DNA from: a virus | Direction: 5' to 3' (one strand) | IMG/VR virus record: IMGVR_UViG_3300025122_000049 | Span: 1 to 39,875 of that record | DNA length: 39,875 nucleotides | Shown here: in pieces, positions 1,069-34,541 of the stretch | Numbering within the stretch: the stretch's first letter is position 1 | How the letters are laid out: every line of letters begins with the position of its first letter | The notes under the pieces: generated by a model | What the model was told of the DNA's origin: nothing | What the model saw: only the letters and a program-made list of their open reading frames with translations | The model's database searches: none | Position numbers and translations under genes: made by a program

Positions 1069-1433
1069 AAGATCCTGATCATCTCATTAAAGTCGAGAAA
1101 GCTATTCAAGAAAAATATGGTGATGAAACAATCCAGAATCCCAAAGTAACTTGGAACCAAGAAAAAGAAAAGAAATATCTTGAGCAAATAAAAAAGATAT
1201 ACAGAAATACCAAACCCAAAGAGAAGATTGAAGTGGATGGCGTTTTTGTGCCTAAGAAACTATTTACAAAAGAATCAAAGCGCACTTGTCCTGTTTGTAA
1301 AATTTATTCTTTTGAAATGAAAGATGATTTATACATGGCAAAGTTTAAGTGTTGCTTCGTGTGTTATGTTCAATACGTTGAGGGAAGAGAAAAGAAATGG
1401 CTAAATCAGTTAAACTCACCAGAGAAGAATTAG
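1065..1433 (+). CDS. Small zinc-ribbon-like protein
   Basis: 122 aa from a GTG at 1065 that overlaps the previous stop (GTGA). An in-frame ATG at 990 exists, but it lies deep inside the preceding gene and gives an unlikely N-terminus. The N-terminal two thirds is charged and helical. The C-terminal part has RTCPVC at about residues 81-86 and, about 20 residues on, KCCFVC followed by YVEGREKKW. Two CxxC pairs of this spacing suggest one structural zinc site. No catalytic motif is visible, and the function is unknown. The last 37 nt overlap the start of the next gene. Confidence 0.6.
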   Translation: MKDPDHLIKVEKAIQEKYGDETIQNPKVTWNQEKEKKYLEQIKKIYRNTKPKEKIEVDGVFVPKKLFTKESKRTCPVCKIYSFEMKDDLYMAKFKCCFVCYVQYVEGREKKWLNQLNSPEKN

Positions 1434-1957
1434 AAAAAATTATCACTGAAGAATTAGGTAATATCGATGAGGGACTCCTTTCGCGTATGATGGCTAAAAT
1501 GAGTGCCACAGGTTCAGGTGCAAAAGCTAGTGTTGGAAACATCGCGAAAAAAGTTTTGAATGTTGGGCTTCGTGCTTTTGATGCGCCCGAATTAAAGATG
1601 CTTGACCCCAAAGCTGTAAAACAAATGACAGTTTTGGCAAAGCGTATGACTTCTGCTGGTGAGCAGGTATCCAAAGTGTATAAAGATATTCAAAGGGATT
1701 TTGAGAAACTTTCGAAAGGAGTACAGCCGGAAGTTTTTAAAGCAGCCTCGGAAATTATTAAGCCAGCATTAGATCAAGCAAAAGAAGCGAGCGCGACCAT
1801 GATGGGTGTTGGTGCAACATTTAAAAAAGCTATTCCTACTCATTCGGCTAAGGGTGGTCAAGAAGCTCCCCAAGGGGCTGGTGCTCCGGCAATGGCAGAA
1901 TCTAAAGAACGTCGAAAAAGCGTTAAAATAAAAATCTTAAAGGAAAATAAAAAATAA
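1397..1957 (+). CDS. Hypothetical protein with capsid-targeting-like N-terminus
   Basis: 186 aa. The start at 1397 is preceded by a purine-rich GGAAGAG. Residues 6-20 (KLTREELEKIITEEL) form an amphipathic helix of the same type found at both ends of the protein at 8424-9383 and, less strictly, at 9383-9784. It contains an I-x-E site of the kind cut by T4 gp21 prohead protease. The middle is an Ala/Lys-rich helical region, and the C-terminus is strongly basic (KERRKSVKIKILKENKK). An internal head protein or scaffold-associated protein is a reasonable guess, but no family is recognised. The stop and the next start share one base (TAATG). Confidence 0.6.
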   Translation: MAKSVKLTREELEKIITEELGNIDEGLLSRMMAKMSATGSGAKASVGNIAKKVLNVGLRAFDAPELKMLDPKAVKQMTVLAKRMTSAGEQVSKVYKDIQRDFEKLSKGVQPEVFKAASEIIKPALDQAKEASATMMGVGATFKKAIPTHSAKGGQEAPQGAGAPAMAESKERRKSVKIKILKENKK

Positions 1958-7819: not shown

Positions 7820-8422
7820 ATGAGCAATAAATATCTTTTACGGGAATACTATGAATTATGTGCTGGTGGTATCTGCCATGATTTATTGACTGAAGAAGAA
7901 AAAATTCAGGTTAAGAATGGTGCGGTTTATTTATCCGGTGTAATGCAAAGAGTGGATGAACAAAATGGCAATGGTCGTGTTTATCCCAAAAATGTATTAA
8001 TGCGTGAAGTTAAAAATTACATGAAGGTTGTGAAAGAAAACCGTGCCTGTGGTGAGCTAGACCATCCAGAAGATTCAGTAGTTAATCTTAAAAATGCCTC
8101 TCACATGGTTAAAGATTTGTGGTGGGAAGGAAATGATCTTTTAGGGAAAGTTCGAGTTCTTTCCACTCCGTCTGGTAAAATCCTAGAGTCACTTATTAAT
8201 GATGGAGTCAGACTTGGGATTTCTTCGCGAGCACTTGGCTCAGTTCACGAACAAGCAGGCAAAACAATTGTGGAAGATGATTTGCAACTCATTTGTTTTG
8301 ATATTGTTTCAGAGCCTTCAACGCAAGGTGCGTTTATGCAACTTAGTGAATCAAAAATTAAACAACCATATTCAAAAGCAGATAGGCTAAACAGATTGCT
8401 TAACGATATTGTAGGAGAATAA
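7820..8422 (+). CDS. 21: Prohead core protease (T4 gp21-like)
   Basis: 200 aa from the ATG at 7820, which has GGGAG about 7 nt upstream. An in-frame TTG at 7790 lies inside the upstream hairpin and is less likely. This serine protease is assembled in the prohead and trims scaffold, capsid and internal proteins during maturation. The family pattern is visible: GELDHPE with H82, GISSRALG with S135/S136 as nucleophile candidates, and DIVSEPS with D161. It is followed after one base by the ParB/Srx-like gene, and scaffold and capsid genes lie downstream, as in T4-type head clusters. Confidence 0.9.
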   Translation: MSNKYLLREYYELCAGGICHDLLTEEEKIQVKNGAVYLSGVMQRVDEQNGNGRVYPKNVLMREVKNYMKVVKENRACGELDHPEDSVVNLKNASHMVKDLWWEGNDLLGKVRVLSTPSGKILESLINDGVRLGISSRALGSVHEQAGKTIVEDDLQLICFDIVSEPSTQGAFMQLSESKIKQPYSKADRLNRLLNDIVGE

Positions 8423-8423
8423 A

Positions 8424-9383
8424 ATGAAAATTTATAAAAGCCAACTTAAACAAATGATTGAAGAAGAAACTGCGCACATTATGGGAGAAGAAGCAAACCC
8501 AGGTCAATTCGAGCCCGAACGATTTCCAATGAAATTATCTGATGTAGATCCTGATGCGGCTAAAATTGCCGTAACCCATGGTCATTCAAAGTATGATAAA
8601 GACCCTGCCGATGATGAAATTAGTGTTAATAAAGCATTTGAAGCCCCCGTTAGCGATTTAAAACCATCGCAGTCGAGCATGAACATTGGTAAAGCTTTGG
8701 GTATGGCTCTTGCGATGATTATGGGGAAAGAAGGCGGAGGAATGCCCATCGGTGGAAATTTAGGTGCTTTTATTAGTCAAGATAATTTTATTATGGATGG
8801 TCATCATAGGTGGATTGCAACTGCGATGGTTGACCCCACACAGCCAATCGGTGGGATGCAAGTCGGCTTTCCTGGTAAACAGTTGATTGGAATTCTTAAT
8901 GCTATGACTGCGGGGCAGTTTGGTGTTCTAAAGGGAAAGAAAGGTTCTGGTGGGTTCGATCAATTTGAAGAAGGGCCAATTAAAAAACAACTTTTGGATT
9001 TTGTAAAAGCTGGAACTCCTGGTGAATTTGGCAAAGGTCCAGACTGGGTTGCCAATGCCATTGAAAAGTTTGCTGGGGAATCCGTTGAGGGTGGTGGAGT
9101 TGATGCAGCGGTTGAAAAATTCCTCTCTAATCTTGAATCAGTCAAACCCCTGGCTGCTAACATTCTTCCTGATGCCCCTGATCGTTTAGATATGCCCGTG
9201 ATTGAACCTGAGAATGCAGACGCCGCAATTAACGCTCTTGAAAAAGGTCATGTGGATGTGAACCCGCCATACTTTACGGGCGAAGAAGAAGTGGCGGCTG
9301 AGTCTAAAAATCTCATGTCAATTTCAAAAAATCGACTTAAAGAAATTATTCAAGAAGAATTGGCAAATAGAAAAAGAAAATAA
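8424..9383 (+). CDS. ParB/sulfiredoxin-fold-like protein with capsid-targeting-like termini
   Basis: 319 aa. The central part has the pattern EAPVSDLKPSQ at about residues 73-83 and, after a Gly-rich stretch, DNFIMDGHHRWIA at about residues 120-132. Together they resemble the N-terminal ParB/Srx nucleotide-binding fold (GERR, GCHR or DGHHR motif). The N-terminus (KSQLKQMIEEE) and the C-terminus (SISKNRLKEIIQEELANR) carry two copies of the same amphipathic motif, each with an I-x-E site that a gp21-type protease could cut. The gene lies directly after that protease. I infer a protein carried into the prohead. Whether it binds or hydrolyses nucleotides is unknown. It ends in a TAATG overlap with the next gene. 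Confidence 0.7.
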   Translation: MKIYKSQLKQMIEEETAHIMGEEANPGQFEPERFPMKLSDVDPDAAKIAVTHGHSKYDKDPADDEISVNKAFEAPVSDLKPSQSSMNIGKALGMALAMIMGKEGGGMPIGGNLGAFISQDNFIMDGHHRWIATAMVDPTQPIGGMQVGFPGKQLIGILNAMTAGQFGVLKGKKGSGGFDQFEEGPIKKQLLDFVKAGTPGEFGKGPDWVANAIEKFAGESVEGGGVDAAVEKFLSNLESVKPLAANILPDAPDRLDMPVIEPENADAAINALEKGHVDVNPPYFTGEEEVAAESKNLMSISKNRLKEIIQEELANRKRK

Positions 9384-9785: not shown

Positions 9786-9992
9786 ATGAAAACCAGAATT
9801 AGAAAACACGAATCGTCAGAAAACTTAATTAAAAGGTTTTGCCGTAAAGTAAAAAAATCAAAAATTATCGAGGAATATATTGAAAATCAGTATTACAAAA
9901 AGCCTTCCGAAATACGACGCGAAAAATATTTTAGAAGGTTAGCTTTGTTTGAAAAATTAAAGCACAAAGAAAAACAGAAAAGAGATGATTGA
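9786..9992 (+). CDS. rpsU: Phage-encoded ribosomal protein bS21 homologue
   Basis: 68 aa, very basic. It aligns by eye with bacterial bS21 across most of its length. The segment LIKRFCRKVKKSKIIEE corresponds to the ALRRFKRxxEKxGVLxE region, and YYKKPSEIRR corresponds to the FYEKPTTERKR signature. The usual length of about 70 aa also fits. bS21 sits on the 30S platform near the mRNA exit and anti-Shine-Dalgarno region. Viral bS21 copies are known from aquatic phage genomes and are thought to enter host ribosomes and favour phage translation. Here the gene is embedded between head genes, 2 nt after the preceding stop, so it is probably expressed late. Confidence 0.85.
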   Translation: MKTRIRKHESSENLIKRFCRKVKKSKIIEEYIENQYYKKPSEIRREKYFRRLALFEKLKHKEKQKRDD

Positions 9993-11444: not shown

Positions 11445-12899
11445 ATGTCGTCATCTATGTTAGAACAAGCGGTAATTGATGCTCAAGCACTGAAAGAAGC
11501 TGCAATTAAGAACGCAGAGCAAGAAGTTCTTGGAAAATATGCAGGTGAAATTAAGGAAGCAGTAGATTCCCTTCTTGAACAAGAAGAAGATCCTTTTGCT
11601 GAAGAAGACCCTTTGTTGGGGGGTGAAGAAGGCGCGGAAGAACACGAGGATGTTGTTGACCAATTAACCGGTGCAGCAGTCGATGGCGAAAGACTTTGCC
11701 CGTGCCCCGAAACTGATGAACCAGTTGTTTTAGATCTTGACCAACTTGTGGCGGCGGCGGGAATAGCATCAGGAGAGGGCGAAGAAGAATTTGAAGAAGA
11801 GCCTGCGCCCGAGGAAGAAGAACTTTTTGAAGTTAATAAGGATAATCTCATGGTAGCAATTTCTGAAGTCTTAACCGAAAAAGAAGATAAAGAAGACGAC
11901 GACGAAAAACAAACGCCCGAAGAACGTGCGAAGGATATTAAAGGGGATGGTGAGTCAGTGAAATCTGAATTAGAAGATACACCCGAAGACGAAAAAGATG
12001 ATGTCCTCGCAGCATTACGAAAAATGGATGAAGGAACAAGATTAAAAATTATTGATAAAGTTTTTGAGGATAGTGGCGAGGAAGAAGAAAGACATTATAA
12101 ATCCAATCGCGAAGAAGACGAAAGACATCTTTCCGCTTTGAAAAAAGATATGGAATCTGATGACGATGCGCCCGGTGAAGATGCGAGCGAAGAAGAAAAA
12201 GAACATTACCGACGCAATCGCGAAGCCGACAAGAAGCACATCACGAACTTGGAAAAAGATAAGAGGTATGATGACGAGCACGAACCTCTTGAAGAAGCGA
12301 ACCTTACTGATGAACAACTAAACGATATTCTTGAAGCGTTAACAGTTGATATTGAAAACGTTCCTTCTGGAATGTTGTTCCATACTCACCCCACTAAGGG
12401 TGAAAGTGAATACGGTCTTAATGTTGCCATCGCCAAAGAACAAGATACTGTTTATGGCGAGGAACAGGAAGAATTGCGTCAAGCAATTAAAAAGCTACAA
12501 GAGCAAAGTAAATCTCAGAAGCTTCAATTGAATAAGCAGAAAAAAGATTATAACAATCTTATGAGTGTTACGCTTAAAGCTACAGAAAAGTTAGAAGAAG
12601 TCAATTTTTCTAACGCAAAACTAATCTACACGAATCGCATATTGAAAAGCGACTCCTTGAATGAGCGACAAAAAGACAAACTTGTCGAAGCTCTTTCTAA
12701 AGTTGGTTCAGTAGAAGAAGCAAAGATTGTTTTTGATACACTGAAAGAAAATCTAACGTCGAAGGGTAGCAATGCTCCGAAGACGTTAAATGAAGCAGTG
12801 AGCAAAAATAGTCAGCTTATTTTGAAATCAAACAAGGAAAAACAACCTGCTGGTCAAAATCAAATCGATAGATTGAAAAAATTAGCAGGAATAATTTAA
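11445..12899 (+). CDS. 22: Prohead core scaffolding protein (T4 gp22-like)
   Basis: 484 aa, extremely acidic and largely helical, directly upstream of the major capsid gene as in T4. It would form the internal core on which the capsid shell assembles and then be degraded by the gp21-type protease. Many L-x-E and I-x-E sites are present (for example SLLEQEEDP). The C-terminal quarter has the conserved scaffold segment NAKLIYTNRILKSDSLNERQ followed by KLVEALSKVGSVEEAKIVFD. The middle holds a 37-residue duplication: ERHYKSNREEDERH and EHYRRNREADKKH with their flanks (coding DNA near 12081 and 12189). CPCPETDEPV at about residue 85 is an oddity in such a protein. It is longer than T4 gp22 (269 aa) because of the acidic insertions. 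Confidence 0.85.
   Translation: MSSSMLEQAVIDAQALKEAAIKNAEQEVLGKYAGEIKEAVDSLLEQEEDPFAEEDPLLGGEEGAEEHEDVVDQLTGAAVDGERLCPCPETDEPVVLDLDQLVAAAGIASGEGEEEFEEEPAPEEEELFEVNKDNLMVAISEVLTEKEDKEDDDEKQTPEERAKDIKGDGESVKSELEDTPEDEKDDVLAALRKMDEGTRLKIIDKVFEDSGEEEERHYKSNREEDERHLSALKKDMESDDDAPGEDASEEEKEHYRRNREADKKHITNLEKDKRYDDEHEPLEEANLTDEQLNDILEALTVDIENVPSGMLFHTHPTKGESEYGLNVAIAKEQDTVYGEEQEELRQAIKKLQEQSKSQKLQLNKQKKDYNNLMSVTLKATEKLEEVNFSNAKLIYTNRILKSDSLNERQKDKLVEALSKVGSVEEAKIVFDTLKENLTSKGSNAPKTLNEAVSKNSQLILKSNKEKQPAGQNQIDRLKKLAGII
12081..12270 (+). repeat. Imperfect 111-bp duplication in scaffold gene
   Basis: Two copies of a unit encoding EExxHYxxNRExDxxH...LxKDxxxDD are offset by 111 bp (37 codons), judged from the HY codons at 12093 and 12204. 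Both units lie in the acidic coiled region. Confidence 0.65.
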
Positions 12900-12913: not shown

Positions 12914-14749
12914 ATGAGTATTGTTGAAAAACTTACAGAGGGTGTCATTAATCGTGACCTCTCGCGAGAATCCAATGCCCTTCTCGATAAATGGGAAAGG
13001 ACTGGACTTCTTGAAGGACTTGAAAGTGACTATAGTCGTCAGGCTATGGCATCACTTTTAGAAAATCAAGCCAAAGAACTTCTTCGTGAAGCTTCTACAA
13101 TGGCACAAGGGGATGTTGAGGGCTTTGCGGCTGTCGCATTTCCAATCGTTCGTCGTGTATTCGGCGGACTGGTAGCAAATGAACTCGTTTCGGTACAGCC
13201 AATGAGCTTGCCAAGCGGTCTTATTTTCTTCCTAGACTTCACAACGGCGAATCTGAAATTAGGTTCAGAAAATTGCGAGTCAGTTTATGGTGGTGGAAAA
13301 GTTGGTTCACAAATTACTGGTGGTATTTCACTGACCGGTGATAGTGCGGAGGATAGTTTTTATAATTTGAATAACGGCTATGCTTCTCCAACGGCATCTT
13401 TTTGCCTCCCCGCTACGACGGCTGGCGAGGTTGATTCCGACATTGGTACAATTGTTGTTGCTTATGGAACCTATGGAGGTACGACACCGACTTTCGGTGG
13501 GGCTACGCCTGCGGTGAACGCTTTGGGTGGATTGTCAACTCAGGCGGATTTTGATAGGCTTTGTCGTTACGACCCTGATTTTACTTCAGGAACTACGAAC
13601 GTTTGTATTATGCGTATTACGGGAAGTGGACAATGGCCGGGACAATTCAATCGAGATGATTTGGTTGCGATTACGCCGCGCACTTCCGGTGGTGCGGTTT
13701 TGGGTGCCTCGTATGGTACACAAGCTCGACGGCTTACGACTTATTCTGGCAGTCTTAGCGGACTACATCAGCCAAGTGACGGACAAGGAACTGACATTCT
13801 CCTTTTCTTCCACTCTGACTCACTCACATTGTCCACTATGTCGGGAGCCATCGCCGGAAGCGGGATGTGTATCGATATGCCAATTTCAGATAATTTCAAT
13901 GCCGGTTCTTCAGTCGGTTCTGTAGTGGGTGCGCCTACTTGGGATCTTGAAGCTCTTGGTACGGATACATGTGGTACAACCAATTCTGCATCAGCAATTG
14001 CCGAAATTGATATTAAGGTGGATAGTGTTGCGATTACTGCGAATACGAAGAAACTTCGAGCGAAGTGGACTCCTGAATTGCAGCAAGACATTAATGCTTA
14101 TCATAATCTTGATGCTGAAGTTGAACTTACATCAATTTTATCCGAGACTATTGCTCTTGAAATTGACCAAGAAATTCTTGAAGATCTTATTGTTGGAGCC
14201 ACGGCAGGTACAATGTACTGGTCACGACTCCCCGGTAAATTCCTTAACAAGACTACTGGTTTAAGTATCAATCAAACACTCTTCCCAGATTTTACTGGGA
14301 CAGTTTCTGAATGGTATGAGACTTTGCTCGAAAGAGTCAACGACGTTTCTGCACAGATTCATCGTAAGACCCTTCGTGGTGGAGCTAATTTCTTGGTGAC
14401 GAGCCCTGAGATTGCTAATGTTCTTGAGTTTACAAGTGGTTTCCGCGCAAGCACTACCGCAGATGAAAACAAAGGAACGGCTGGTGCTGTCAATGTTGGA
14501 AGTATCAGTAAGAAGTGGGATGTTTATGTTGACCCGTATTTCCCACGGAACTTGATTCTTGTCGGTCGTAAGGGAAATAGTTTCCTTGAGAGTGGCTATG
14601 TATATGCACCTTATGTGCCTCTACAGACCACACCGACCATTTTTGACCCAGAGAACTTCACGCCTCGCAAGGGTGTGATGACTCGATACGGTAAGAAGAT
14701 GGTTCGACCCGATATGTACGGTCTAGTTATTGTTCAAGATTTAGTTTAG
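12914..14749 (+). CDS. 23: Major capsid protein (T4 gp23-like)
   Basis: 611 aa, preceded by a strong AAGGAG at 12898-12903. This HK97-fold shell protein follows the scaffold gene. The gp23 hallmark is visible after an N-terminal propeptide: FPIVRRVFGGLVANELVSVQ PMSLPSGLIFFLDF at about residues 76-108. Propeptide processing by the gp21-type protease is expected; LRE at residues 57-59 gives a candidate cut before A60, close to the T4 cut after residue 65. The C-terminal half has LETxx-type helical and beta regions, then PYVPLQTTPTIFDPENFTPR and GVMTRYGKKMVRPDMYG, typical of the family. The Gly/Thr-rich insert at about residues 130-300 is longer than expected for a minimal shell protein and may form a surface domain. 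A strong terminator follows. Confidence 0.93.
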   Translation: MSIVEKLTEGVINRDLSRESNALLDKWERTGLLEGLESDYSRQAMASLLENQAKELLREASTMAQGDVEGFAAVAFPIVRRVFGGLVANELVSVQPMSLPSGLIFFLDFTTANLKLGSENCESVYGGGKVGSQITGGISLTGDSAEDSFYNLNNGYASPTASFCLPATTAGEVDSDIGTIVVAYGTYGGTTPTFGGATPAVNALGGLSTQADFDRLCRYDPDFTSGTTNVCIMRITGSGQWPGQFNRDDLVAITPRTSGGAVLGASYGTQARRLTTYSGSLSGLHQPSDGQGTDILLFFHSDSLTLSTMSGAIAGSGMCIDMPISDNFNAGSSVGSVVGAPTWDLEALGTDTCGTTNSASAIAEIDIKVDSVAITANTKKLRAKWTPELQQDINAYHNLDAEVELTSILSETIALEIDQEILEDLIVGATAGTMYWSRLPGKFLNKTTGLSINQTLFPDFTGTVSEWYETLLERVNDVSAQIHRKTLRGGANFLVTSPEIANVLEFTSGFRASTTADENKGTAGAVNVGSISKKWDVYVDPYFPRNLILVGRKGNSFLESGYVYAPYVPLQTTPTIFDPENFTPRKGVMTRYGKKMVRPDMYGLVIVQDLV

Positions 14750-33406: not shown

Positions 33407-33711
33407 CAGTAAAAAAATATGATAAACTCGTAAGAGATAAGATTCCAGATATAATAGAATCTCAGGGAAAGAAATGTAAACTTTATGTTGCTACGGGATA
33501 TGATTATCACAACCGACTTAAAGACAAACTTCTTGAGGAAGCCAAAGAATTTTTTGAGAACCCTTGTGTTGAAGAACTTGCAGACGTGCAAGAAGTAATT
33601 GAGGCTTTGGCAGATATTCACAGGTGGGATGTTACTGGAGCACGTCTTAAAAAAACCGTGGAACGCGGAGGCTTTTGGCGTCGTTATGTTTTGCTAGAGG
33701 TTTCAGAATAG
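33403..33711 (+). CDS. MazG/PRA-PH-like nucleotide pyrophosphohydrolase
   Basis: 102 aa. The N-terminus YDKLVRDKIPDIIES and the motif LLEEAKEF (E45/E46, E49) plus EELADVQEVIEAL (E58, D61) match the ExxE...ExxD metal-binding pattern of all-alpha NTP pyrophosphatases related to COG4997 (phosphoribosyl-ATP pyrophosphohydrolase-like). The ending ERGGFWRRYVLLE agrees with that family's KRGGF-x-x-x-x-L. The role would be to hydrolyse non-canonical or excess nucleotides, next to a DNA polymerase. It overlaps the polymerase stop and the following start. Confidence 0.85.
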   Translation: MTVKKYDKLVRDKIPDIIESQGKKCKLYVATGYDYHNRLKDKLLEEAKEFFENPCVEELADVQEVIEALADIHRWDVTGARLKKTVERGGFWRRYVLLEVSE

Positions 33712-34541
33712 TGGATACTGTTATCGGACTTGGGAATGCTGGTTGTGCAATTGCTGATAAGTTTAGCAAATATTCTCAATATAAGACATATAAAATTGAC
33801 GTGGGTTTGAAACGAACTCCAAGTACCTATCCGATAAAAGAACATAAAAAAATTGAAGATTATGAAGAAAAATGCCCCGCATTTACCAAATTTTTCAAGG
33901 ATGTGAGTGGAGATATTCTGTTCGTTGTAGGCGGCGCGGGAAGAATTTCTAGTGCATCTCTTACAGTTCTGAAAAGACTCAAGCATTGTAACATAAACAT
34001 ACTTTATATCAAGCCAGATGAAACTTTTTTGGGAAAAGAGTCTCAAATTTTAAACAATATGGTTTTTGGCGTCTTTCAAGAATATGCGCGGTCTGGTATT
34101 TTTAAAAGATTGTACTTAGTGGATAATAATTTAATAGAAAATATGCTACCTGAAGTTTCAATTAAGAATTATTATGATAATCTTAATGAGGCGATTGTAT
34201 CAACCCTACATATGATAAATTTATTTAATCATACTAAATCAGTTACAGATACTTTTTCTGAACTTCCACCAGCAACCAGAATTTCAACTATTGGTATCGT
34301 AGACCCAGAAAATAACAAAGACCAAATGTTTTTTTCACTTGACAATGCGACAGATATAGTGTACTATTATGCATACAATAAAGAACGATTAGAAGAAGGT
34401 GGAAAATTGTTTTCGGAAATCAAAAATTCTATTAAGGAAAAATTTACAGATGATGTGAGAATTACTTATGGAATTTTCGAAACAAGTTATAAACAGGATT
34501 ACATTTATTGTATCAAACATACGTGTGTAATCCAACAATAA
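33711..34541 (+). CDS. Divergent FtsZ/tubulin-like protein
   Basis: 276 aa from GTG 33711, overlapping the previous stop (TAGTG). An alternative at 33675 lies inside the previous gene. The N-terminus DTVIGLGNAGCAIADKF matches the first glycine-rich loop of FtsZ (KVIGVGGAGGNAVNxM). Later GDILFVVGGAGRISSASLTV LKRL stands where FtsZ has the tubulin signature GGGTGTG, then INILYIKPDETFLGKESQIL NN aligns with the TVAVVTKPFxFEGKKR region, and LVDNNLIENML with IPNDKLL. The signature is degenerate, so GTPase activity is doubtful. The C-terminal domain is short. Possible roles: positioning replication or interfering with host division; neither is shown. Gene neighbours are DNA polymerase and SSB. Confidence 0.7.
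   Translation: MDTVIGLGNAGCAIADKFSKYSQYKTYKIDVGLKRTPSTYPIKEHKKIEDYEEKCPAFTKFFKDVSGDILFVVGGAGRISSASLTVLKRLKHCNINILYIKPDETFLGKESQILNNMVFGVFQEYARSGIFKRLYLVDNNLIENMLPEVSIKNYYDNLNEAIVSTLHMINLFNHTKSVTDTFSELPPATRISTIGIVDPENNKDQMFFSLDNATDIVYYYAYNKERLEEGGKLFSEIKNSIKEKFTDDVRITYGIFETSYKQDYIYCIKHTCVIQQ

What the first reader, a model, noticed from the sequence alone, without database searches (positions are those of the whole stretch)
8424..9383. ParB/sulfiredoxin-like protein that looks addressed to the prohead
The DGHHRWIA motif of the ParB/Srx fold is framed by two copies of a capsid-targeting-like helix, one at each end, and the gene follows the prohead protease. A protein that is packaged, trimmed and delivered with the DNA, and that may bind nucleotides or DNA, would be a new kind of ejected factor.
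Basis: partly seen in the sequence, partly recalled or inferred. Interest (0 to 1): 0.75.

Follow-up and report, generated by a model that had tools for sequence, protein, structure and literature searches.

The report
Prohead-addressed ParB-fold phage protein
This gene makes a nucleotide-binding-type (ParB/sulfiredoxin fold) protein carrying removable address tags that very probably send it inside the head of a T4-like phage, so it is a likely, still untested, cargo injected into the host; it is an unusual variant of a known strategy rather than a wholly new one.

Summary
ORF 8424-9383 (319 aa) follows the prohead protease, carries DGHHRW, and has near-copies of one helix at both ends. AlphaFold2 plus Foldseek place residues ~58-172 in the ParB/Srx superfamily; all credible PDB hits belong to it.

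At least 175 viral contigs encode relatives. In 70 aligned relatives the N-terminal extension varies in length and type (some are near-copies of the T4 capsid-targeting sequence). It ends in [LIVM]-x-E in 67/70, with E invariant in 70/70. That is the T4 prohead-protease motif, also found at the capsid-protein site of the same phages. In about 27 relatives the protein ends in the same RWxxLAG[IL] peptide that ends the scaffold protein; elsewhere in five large contigs only HAD-like proteins carry it.

Best reading: a prohead-core-targeted, protease-trimmed internal head protein, probably ejected with the DNA. Targeting and N-terminal trimming are well supported by comparison. C-terminal trimming in this member is weak; ejection and biochemical activity are untested. 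SerK-type kinase chemistry is unlikely because its catalytic Glu aligns with an invariant Gln.

It is not a new kind: T4 internal proteins, Alt and P1 DdrB are precedents. The stand-alone family and scaffold-tail mimicry appear undescribed. A cultured relative (Microcystis phage Mel-JY01) makes it testable.

The parts
8424..9383 (+). ParB/Srx-fold protein, 319 aa, predicted internal head (cargo) protein
   Evidence: ORF; AF2 pLDDT 92.9, pTM 0.83; 175 viral relatives
8413..8418 (+). AGGAGA ribosome-binding site inside the 3' end of the protease gene (translational coupling)
   Evidence: sequence
8424..8489 (+). N-terminal leader MKIYKSQLKQMIEEETAHIMGE (residues 1-22), predicted core-docking propeptide; helix 5-20
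   Evidence: variable leader in 70 relatives, interchangeable with T4-CTS-like leaders; helix in model
8481..8489 (+). predicted prohead protease site M20-G21-E22 | E23
   Evidence: E 70/70, [LIVM] at P3 67/70; 45/45 and 42/45 among leaders under 50% alike
8595..8939 (+). ParB/Srx domain, residues 58-172
   Evidence: AF2 domain model pLDDT 89.8; the top 38 PDB Foldseek hits are ParB, Noc, Srx, SbnI, SerK, Atu1540, Pfu-392566
8658..8672 (+). LKPSQ (79-83), ParB box-I-like; Gln83 invariant, aligns with the SerK catalytic Glu30
8796..8813 (+). DGHHRW (125-130), GxxR P-motif (box II), invariant
   Evidence: 70/70 in A2
8940..9278 (+). helical region 173-285 ending in conserved DMPVI and G-x-VDVNPPY elements
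9279..9380 (+). C-terminal tail 286-319: low-confidence linker with AAE293|S294, then helix KNRLKEIIQEELANRKRK, second copy of the leader helix
   Evidence: pLDDT 63 in linker; similarity to leader; tails across the family
7820..8422 (+). prohead core protease (S77, gp21-like); ATG 7820 is a likelier start than TTG 7790
11445..12899 (+). gp22-like scaffold, C-terminus DRLKKLAGII (12867-12896): the motif that ends ParB-like proteins in other phages
   Evidence: position before gp23 and family-wide C-terminus
12914..14749 (+). major capsid protein gp23-like; conserved cleavage-like site LLRE59|AST (13079-13090)
   Evidence: Pfam Gp23 3.1e-72; [LI]-x-E in 24/24 relatives
1397..1957 (+). second window protein with a similar leader (KLTREELEKIITEELGNIDE) and an AESK element near its C-terminus

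Best explanation
The gene encodes an internal head protein of a T4-like (gp23-type) myovirus. It is made late, translationally coupled to the prohead protease. The N-terminal helical leader (and in many relatives a scaffold-type C-terminal peptide; in this phage a second copy of the leader helix) docks it onto the scaffolding core inside the forming prohead. On maturation the prohead protease cuts after Glu22, possibly also in the tail near Glu293, freeing a compact ParB/Srx-fold protein that stays in the head with the DNA and probably enters the host at infection. There it most likely acts as an NTP-binding switch or NTPase through its LKPSQ and DGHHRW boxes, in host takeover or counter-defence. 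Shown here: fold, conservation, leader and site pattern, scaffold-tail sharing, gene context. Inferred: packaging, cleavage, ejection, nucleotide use.
For: (1) Leaders differ in length (5-192 aa, mostly 10-47) and type, yet E is invariant (70/70) with a hydrophobic P3 (67/70); in 45 dissimilar leaders 45/45 and 42/45. Other offsets give 0-6, except -8 (28), which is the earlier I/M-x-E of the 22-aa leader type. (2) The same phages' capsid proteins have [LI]-x-E at the equivalent of the T4 gp23 cut (24/24); the T4 gp21 motif is L/I-X-E and T4 propeptides of 10-19 aa target internal proteins (PMC9026906). (3) Some orthologues swap the leader for MKLIMESWKRFVNE-type sequences resembling T4 IPII/IPIII MKTYQEFIAE; 23/25 such leaders are followed by [LIVMF]-x-E. 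(4) RWxxLAG[IL] ends: among 1,397 head-region ORFs only scaffolds, ParB-like proteins and one other cargo-like protein have it; in five large contigs only scaffold, ParB-like and DUF2608 proteins. Cultured relatives' scaffolds end SRWQKLAGIIK and ERMKKLAGIVK. (5) The gene sits among head/tail genes in most loci but at different places. (6) Model: compact core above 90 pLDDT, with dips at residues 11-20 and in the 291-300 linker. (7) Precedents: T4 Alt cut at ITE-6 and LTE-619 (PMC5694885); P1 DdrB in the virion (PMC9024508).
Against: No virion proteomics exists for any member. P1' is usually D, E or K, whereas MCP sites and the T4 IPII/IPIII leaders have A or S. Part of the E22 conservation could come from the following EDADP segment, although paralogues that lost that segment keep L-x-E. 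The window's C-terminal site is AAE|S, not L/I-x-E, and many relatives have no C-terminal tag. Similar leaders occur on 5-12 scattered ORFs per large contig, which fits T4 (ip genes lie about 30-40 kb from gene 23) but also fits a more general tag. A compact, undegraded product and ejection are assumptions.
Confidence: 0.62

Rival explanations
1. It is a prohead core/assembly factor: the end helices bind scaffold, it helps build or size the head, and it is then degraded or left behind rather than ejected.
For: Gene next to protease and scaffold in many loci; scaffold-type C-terminus; T4 gp67/gp68 are core proteins destroyed by gp21 (PMC9958956).
Against: It has a well-folded, invariant nucleotide-pocket domain, not a simple coiled core protein. 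The gene leaves the head module in several phages and is duplicated in some, as accessory cargo would be.
Confidence: 0.2
2. It is a late cytoplasmic ParB-like nucleotide- or DNA-binding protein (for example in DNA packaging or segregation); the end helices are oligomerisation elements and E22 is structural, with no cleavage.
For: ParB fold; E22 directly precedes a segment conserved in the main clade; AF2 gives the helices good confidence.
Against: No HTH or ParA partner seen; leaders of unrelated sequence but with the same L-x-E end do not look like a fixed oligomerisation element; the C-terminal peptide is shared specifically with the scaffold.
Confidence: 0.1
3. It is a delivered small-molecule or protein kinase of the SerK/SbnI type.
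For: DGHHRW matches SerK; NCBIfam SerK model hits 12/70 members (best E 0.0026); SerK among the best PDB profile hits.
Against: SerK catalytic Glu30 aligns with an invariant Gln83; the best-matching SerK chain is the E30Q mutant. No SerK C-terminal domain was recognised. ParB-fold nucleotide use cannot be predicted from sequence (PMC12704722).
Confidence: 0.07

Closest known systems
Phage T4 internal proteins IPI-III and Alt with capsid targeting sequence, cut by gp21
   Same: Short N-terminal leader ending L/I-x-E, S77 protease, gp22/gp23-type head; Alt is trimmed at both ends; cargo genes scattered
   Different: T4 cargo has no ParB/Srx fold; T4 gp22 lacks the LAG[IL] end; the QLKxxI helix leader is not the T4 sequence; packaging unproven here
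P1 DdrB and DdrB-like ParB domains of polyvalent proteins
   Same: ParB/Srx-superfamily domain in a phage protein present in the head
   Different: DdrB is about 995 aa with a peptidase domain; no detectable similarity to this family by hhalign; no T4-type leader
Pseudomonas phage H66 gp60 (PLxRFG giant protein, noted as MS-verified virion part)
   Same: Homologous ParB/Srx segment with LKPTQ...DGHHQW (hhalign 95%, pairwise E 1.9e-8)
   Different: One domain in a protein of several thousand aa; no leader or protease site of this kind; not T4-like
Microcystis phage Mel-JY01 WWT39393.1 (266 aa)
   Same: Full-length homologue (hhalign 99.5%, E 9.5e-23) in a cultured phage with the same head module and scaffold end
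   Different: Belongs to the second paralogue group; short leader MGILKQLLKE; no C-terminal tag; gene outside the head module
SerK / SbnI / sulfiredoxin / ParB-CTPase fold
   Same: Fold, GxxR P-motif, DGHHRW as in SerK
   Different: Srx Cys absent (DGHHR, not GGCHR); SerK Glu30 is Gln; no ParB HTH or dimerisation domain recognised

Membership tests
[quoted passage not shown]
   Topology and GHHR motif; the top 38 PDB Foldseek hits are all superfamily members, best E 0.0026, probability 1.00; no hit below 1e-3 and no Pfam hit, so divergent
Sulfiredoxin (enzyme) | catalytic Cys in the GGCHR motif | tested here: not met
   DGHHRW in 70/70
SerK/SbnI serine kinase | catalytic Glu30 (SerK numbering) | tested here: not met
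   aligned residue is invariant Gln83; alignment short and weak (E 0.05)
Canonical ParB | HTH and C-terminal dimerisation domains, ParA partner | tested here: inconclusive
   no such Pfam hits in 70 members and none recognised in neighbours, but neighbours were annotated only partly
T4-type CTS internal head protein | N-terminal leader ending in L/I-x-E next to an S77 protease system | tested here: met
   67/70 [LIVM]-x-E, E 70/70; PF03420 protease. The window's own site is M-G-E
T4-type CTS internal head protein | leader sequence like T4 MKTYQEFIAE | tested here: inconclusive
   met in orthologues such as L042, L055, L070; the window protein has the other (QLKQMI helix) leader type
T4-type CTS internal head protein | present in mature virion, processed, ejected | not testable with these tools
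   needs virion proteomics
Scaffold-tail-tagged protein (RWxxLAG[IL] C-terminus) | C-terminal peptide shared with scaffold | tested here: not met
   met in about 27 relatives, but the window protein ends RLKEIIQEELANRKRK
Polyvalent protein | two or more disparate effector domains in one chain | tested here: not met
   one enzyme-like domain plus a helical region; some relatives (L082, L087, L020, L022) are longer

The most novel reading that the evidence does not exclude
In these distant T4-like phages there is a two-ended prohead address code: an N-terminal leader cut at L/I-x-E, plus a C-terminal mimic of the scaffold's own tail. It loads a varied toolkit of enzymes (ParB-fold proteins, HAD/PNK-like phosphatases, a cytidylyltransferase-like enzyme) that are injected at infection, the ParB-fold protein being a widespread nucleotide-dependent first-minute effector.
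Probability: 0.35. Interest if true: 0.75.

Novelty: new variant of a known kind. Interest (0 to 1): 0.55.

Why it matters
What T4-like phages outside the enterobacterial models inject with their DNA is almost unknown. If right, a simple sequence rule (leader ending L/I-x-E, scaffold-type tail) lets injected proteins be read from uncultivated phage genomes. It also points to one widespread candidate, a ParB-fold protein found in at least 175 viral contigs, testable in a cultured cyanobacterial phage, and adds possible new packaging tags for protein delivery.

Tried and rejected
Pfam and PHROG scans gave no function for the window protein (S_100 0.024 is noise; PHROG 2859 is of unknown function, matched by 69/70 members). 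Sulfiredoxin enzyme: rejected, no Cys. SerK kinase: not favoured, Glu to Gln. The PDB profile hit to SRP54 9pf4 was dismissed as chance (GTPase, no fold agreement). P1 DdrB homology: none by hhalign. A published description of the leader or tail peptides: no paper in the held library contains them. Bacterial genomes: one relative, on a 305-kb contig of a marine MAG, possibly viral. C-terminal cleavage: E|S recurs in tails but P3 is not consistently L/I, so it is left as weak. The window alone could not show targeting; only the family comparison does.

Full report
Observation. The two end helices are genuine near-copies: best of 42,778 14-mer pairs, 0/3,000 shuffles. The window is a 39.9-kb IMG/VR virus record with terminase, gp20-like portal, protease, scaffold, gp23-like capsid protein, tail tube, gp32-like, RecA-family and DnaB-family genes: a distant T4-like myovirus.

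Fold. AlphaFold2 with 70 relatives gave pLDDT 92.9 and pTM 0.83. The whole model hits ParB-N, Noc, Atu1540, Srx and SerK in the PDB, all weakly (best E 0.048), and a full-length viral 'ParB/Sulfiredoxin' entry at 4.5e-9. The domain alone (residues 58-172; pLDDT 89.8) hits ParB, Noc, Srx, SbnI, SerK, Atu1540 or Pfu-392566 in its first 38 ranks, best E 0.0026 with probability 1.00. The superfamily assignment is firm although no single hit passes 1e-3. Invariant features are Gln83 in LKPSQ and DGHHRW. GHHR fits the GxxR P-motif (PMC12704722). The Srx cysteine is absent. SerK Glu30 aligns with Gln83, so SerK chemistry is unlikely. In Caulobacter ParB, Gln58 of P-motif 1 is needed for CTP hydrolysis (PMC8367383); equating it with Gln83 is my inference.

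Address tags, N-terminus. Among 70 non-redundant relatives the leader varies from 5 to 192 residues, but the residue just before the conserved part is always Glu (70/70) with L, I, V or M three places back (67/70). Among 45 leaders less than 50% alike the counts are 45/45 and 42/45. This is the T4 gp21 rule L/I-X-E (PMC9026906), and the capsid proteins of the same loci have [LI]-x-E at the T4-equivalent site in 24/24. Two main leader types occur on orthologous proteins: a 22-residue helix type (this window) and a 14-residue MKLLMENWRSYLKE type resembling T4 IPII/IPIII MKTYQEFIAE. Orthologues swapping one leader for another while keeping the cut motif is what an interchangeable targeting propeptide predicts.

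Address tags, C-terminus. In about 27 relatives the protein ends in ERWQ(K/R)LAG(I/L)IK. Among 1,397 ORFs around the gene this ending occurs only on ParB-like proteins, gp22-like scaffolds and one further cargo-like protein. In five large contigs (about 1,070 genes) only scaffold, ParB-like and DUF2608 proteins carry it. Scaffolds of cultured relatives end the same way; T4 gp22 does not. By my count, ParB-like proteins carry the tail in 8 of 9 phages whose scaffold ends RWxxLAG and in 0 of 16 whose scaffold ends R[LM]xxLAG. That is confounded by phylogeny and some loci are near-duplicates. The window belongs to the second group and has a second copy of the leader helix instead. Its tail joins through a low-confidence linker holding AAE293|S294. 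Cleavage there is possible, as T4 Alt is cut at both ends (PMC5694885), but is not well supported.

Control. Leaders of these types are not confined to the head module: 5-12 ORFs per large contig have them, including a CTP_transf_like enzyme. This resembles T4, whose ip genes lie about 30-40 kb from gene 23, but it means a leader alone is not proof of packaging.

Context and relatives. The gene sits mostly among head and tail genes but at shifting positions: after the protease, after the capsid gene, upstream of terL, or in tail regions. Five phage groups carry a second, diverged copy nearby. A full-length homologue exists in cultured Microcystis phage Mel-JY01, and the domain occurs in Pseudomonas phage H66 gp60, annotated as MS-verified in the virion.

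Mechanism and judgement. Most likely it is an internal head protein delivered to the host, with an NTP-dependent activity. Shown: fold, conservation, leader/site pattern, scaffold-tail sharing. Inferred: packaging, cleavage, ejection, biochemical role. Known counterparts are T4 internal proteins and Alt, P1 DdrB (in the virion, PMC9024508; ParB/Srx domain, PMC5512222) and polyvalent proteins. It is therefore a new variant of a known kind. The generalisable part is the two-ended address rule.

Noticed in passing
L049:6877-7938 (same as L148:4140-5201) and L157:5413-6324: DUF2608/PNK-like (HAD-type) proteins with a leader-like N-terminus and the scaffold-type C-terminus (ERWQRLAGLIKD / SRWNKLAGLK); one sits between two ParB-like genes. 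Likely co-packaged cargo.
   Followed up: partly
L134:10163-10756 (contig G007 190163-190756): Cytidylyltransferase-like enzyme starting MKLIMENWRSFLKE, i.e. carrying the T4-CTS-like leader.
   Followed up: partly
L060:9739-10860: 373-aa ORF beside two ParB-like genes, with leader MRLIMENWRKFLKE followed by VYHYTS; by eye reminiscent of ADP-ribosyltransferase starts, but no Pfam or PHROG hit.
   Followed up: partly
L049, L059, L060, L070, L085 (two DGHHRW genes each): A second, diverged ParB-like paralogue lies next to or near the first; it keeps DGHHRW and the leader L-x-E end but loses the ADP segment.
   Followed up: partly
window 9786-9992: Ribosomal protein S21 homologue (Pfam 3.5e-8) inside the head module, two genes after the ParB-like gene and conserved there in many relatives (25 S21 hits among the loci).
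   Followed up: no
window 1397-1957: 186-aa protein upstream of terL with the same helix-type leader (KLTREELEKIITEELGNIDE) and an AESK element near its C-terminus; probable further cargo.
   Followed up: partly
window 33675-34541: ORF with a GLGNAGCAIADKF glycine-rich motif, by eye tubulin/FtsZ- or Rossmann-like, no Pfam hit; relatives in several loci.
   Followed up: no
L082:3782-5143, L087:7719-9278, L020:7437-8888, L022:7971-9455: Longer family members with extra N- or C-terminal regions, possibly extra domains.
   Followed up: no
L095 (LR756501.1 284415-284738): A homologue with the LKPSQ...DGHHRW pattern in a 735-kb uncultured phage genome.
   Followed up: partly
L169:5734-6912 (Mel-JY01 WWT39392.1): Gene just behind the cultured ParB-like homologue; its N-terminus MKNNKHYIIQSLLEG...ITEN also has L-x-E and I-x-E sites; possible second cargo to look for in the same proteomics experiment.
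   Followed up: no
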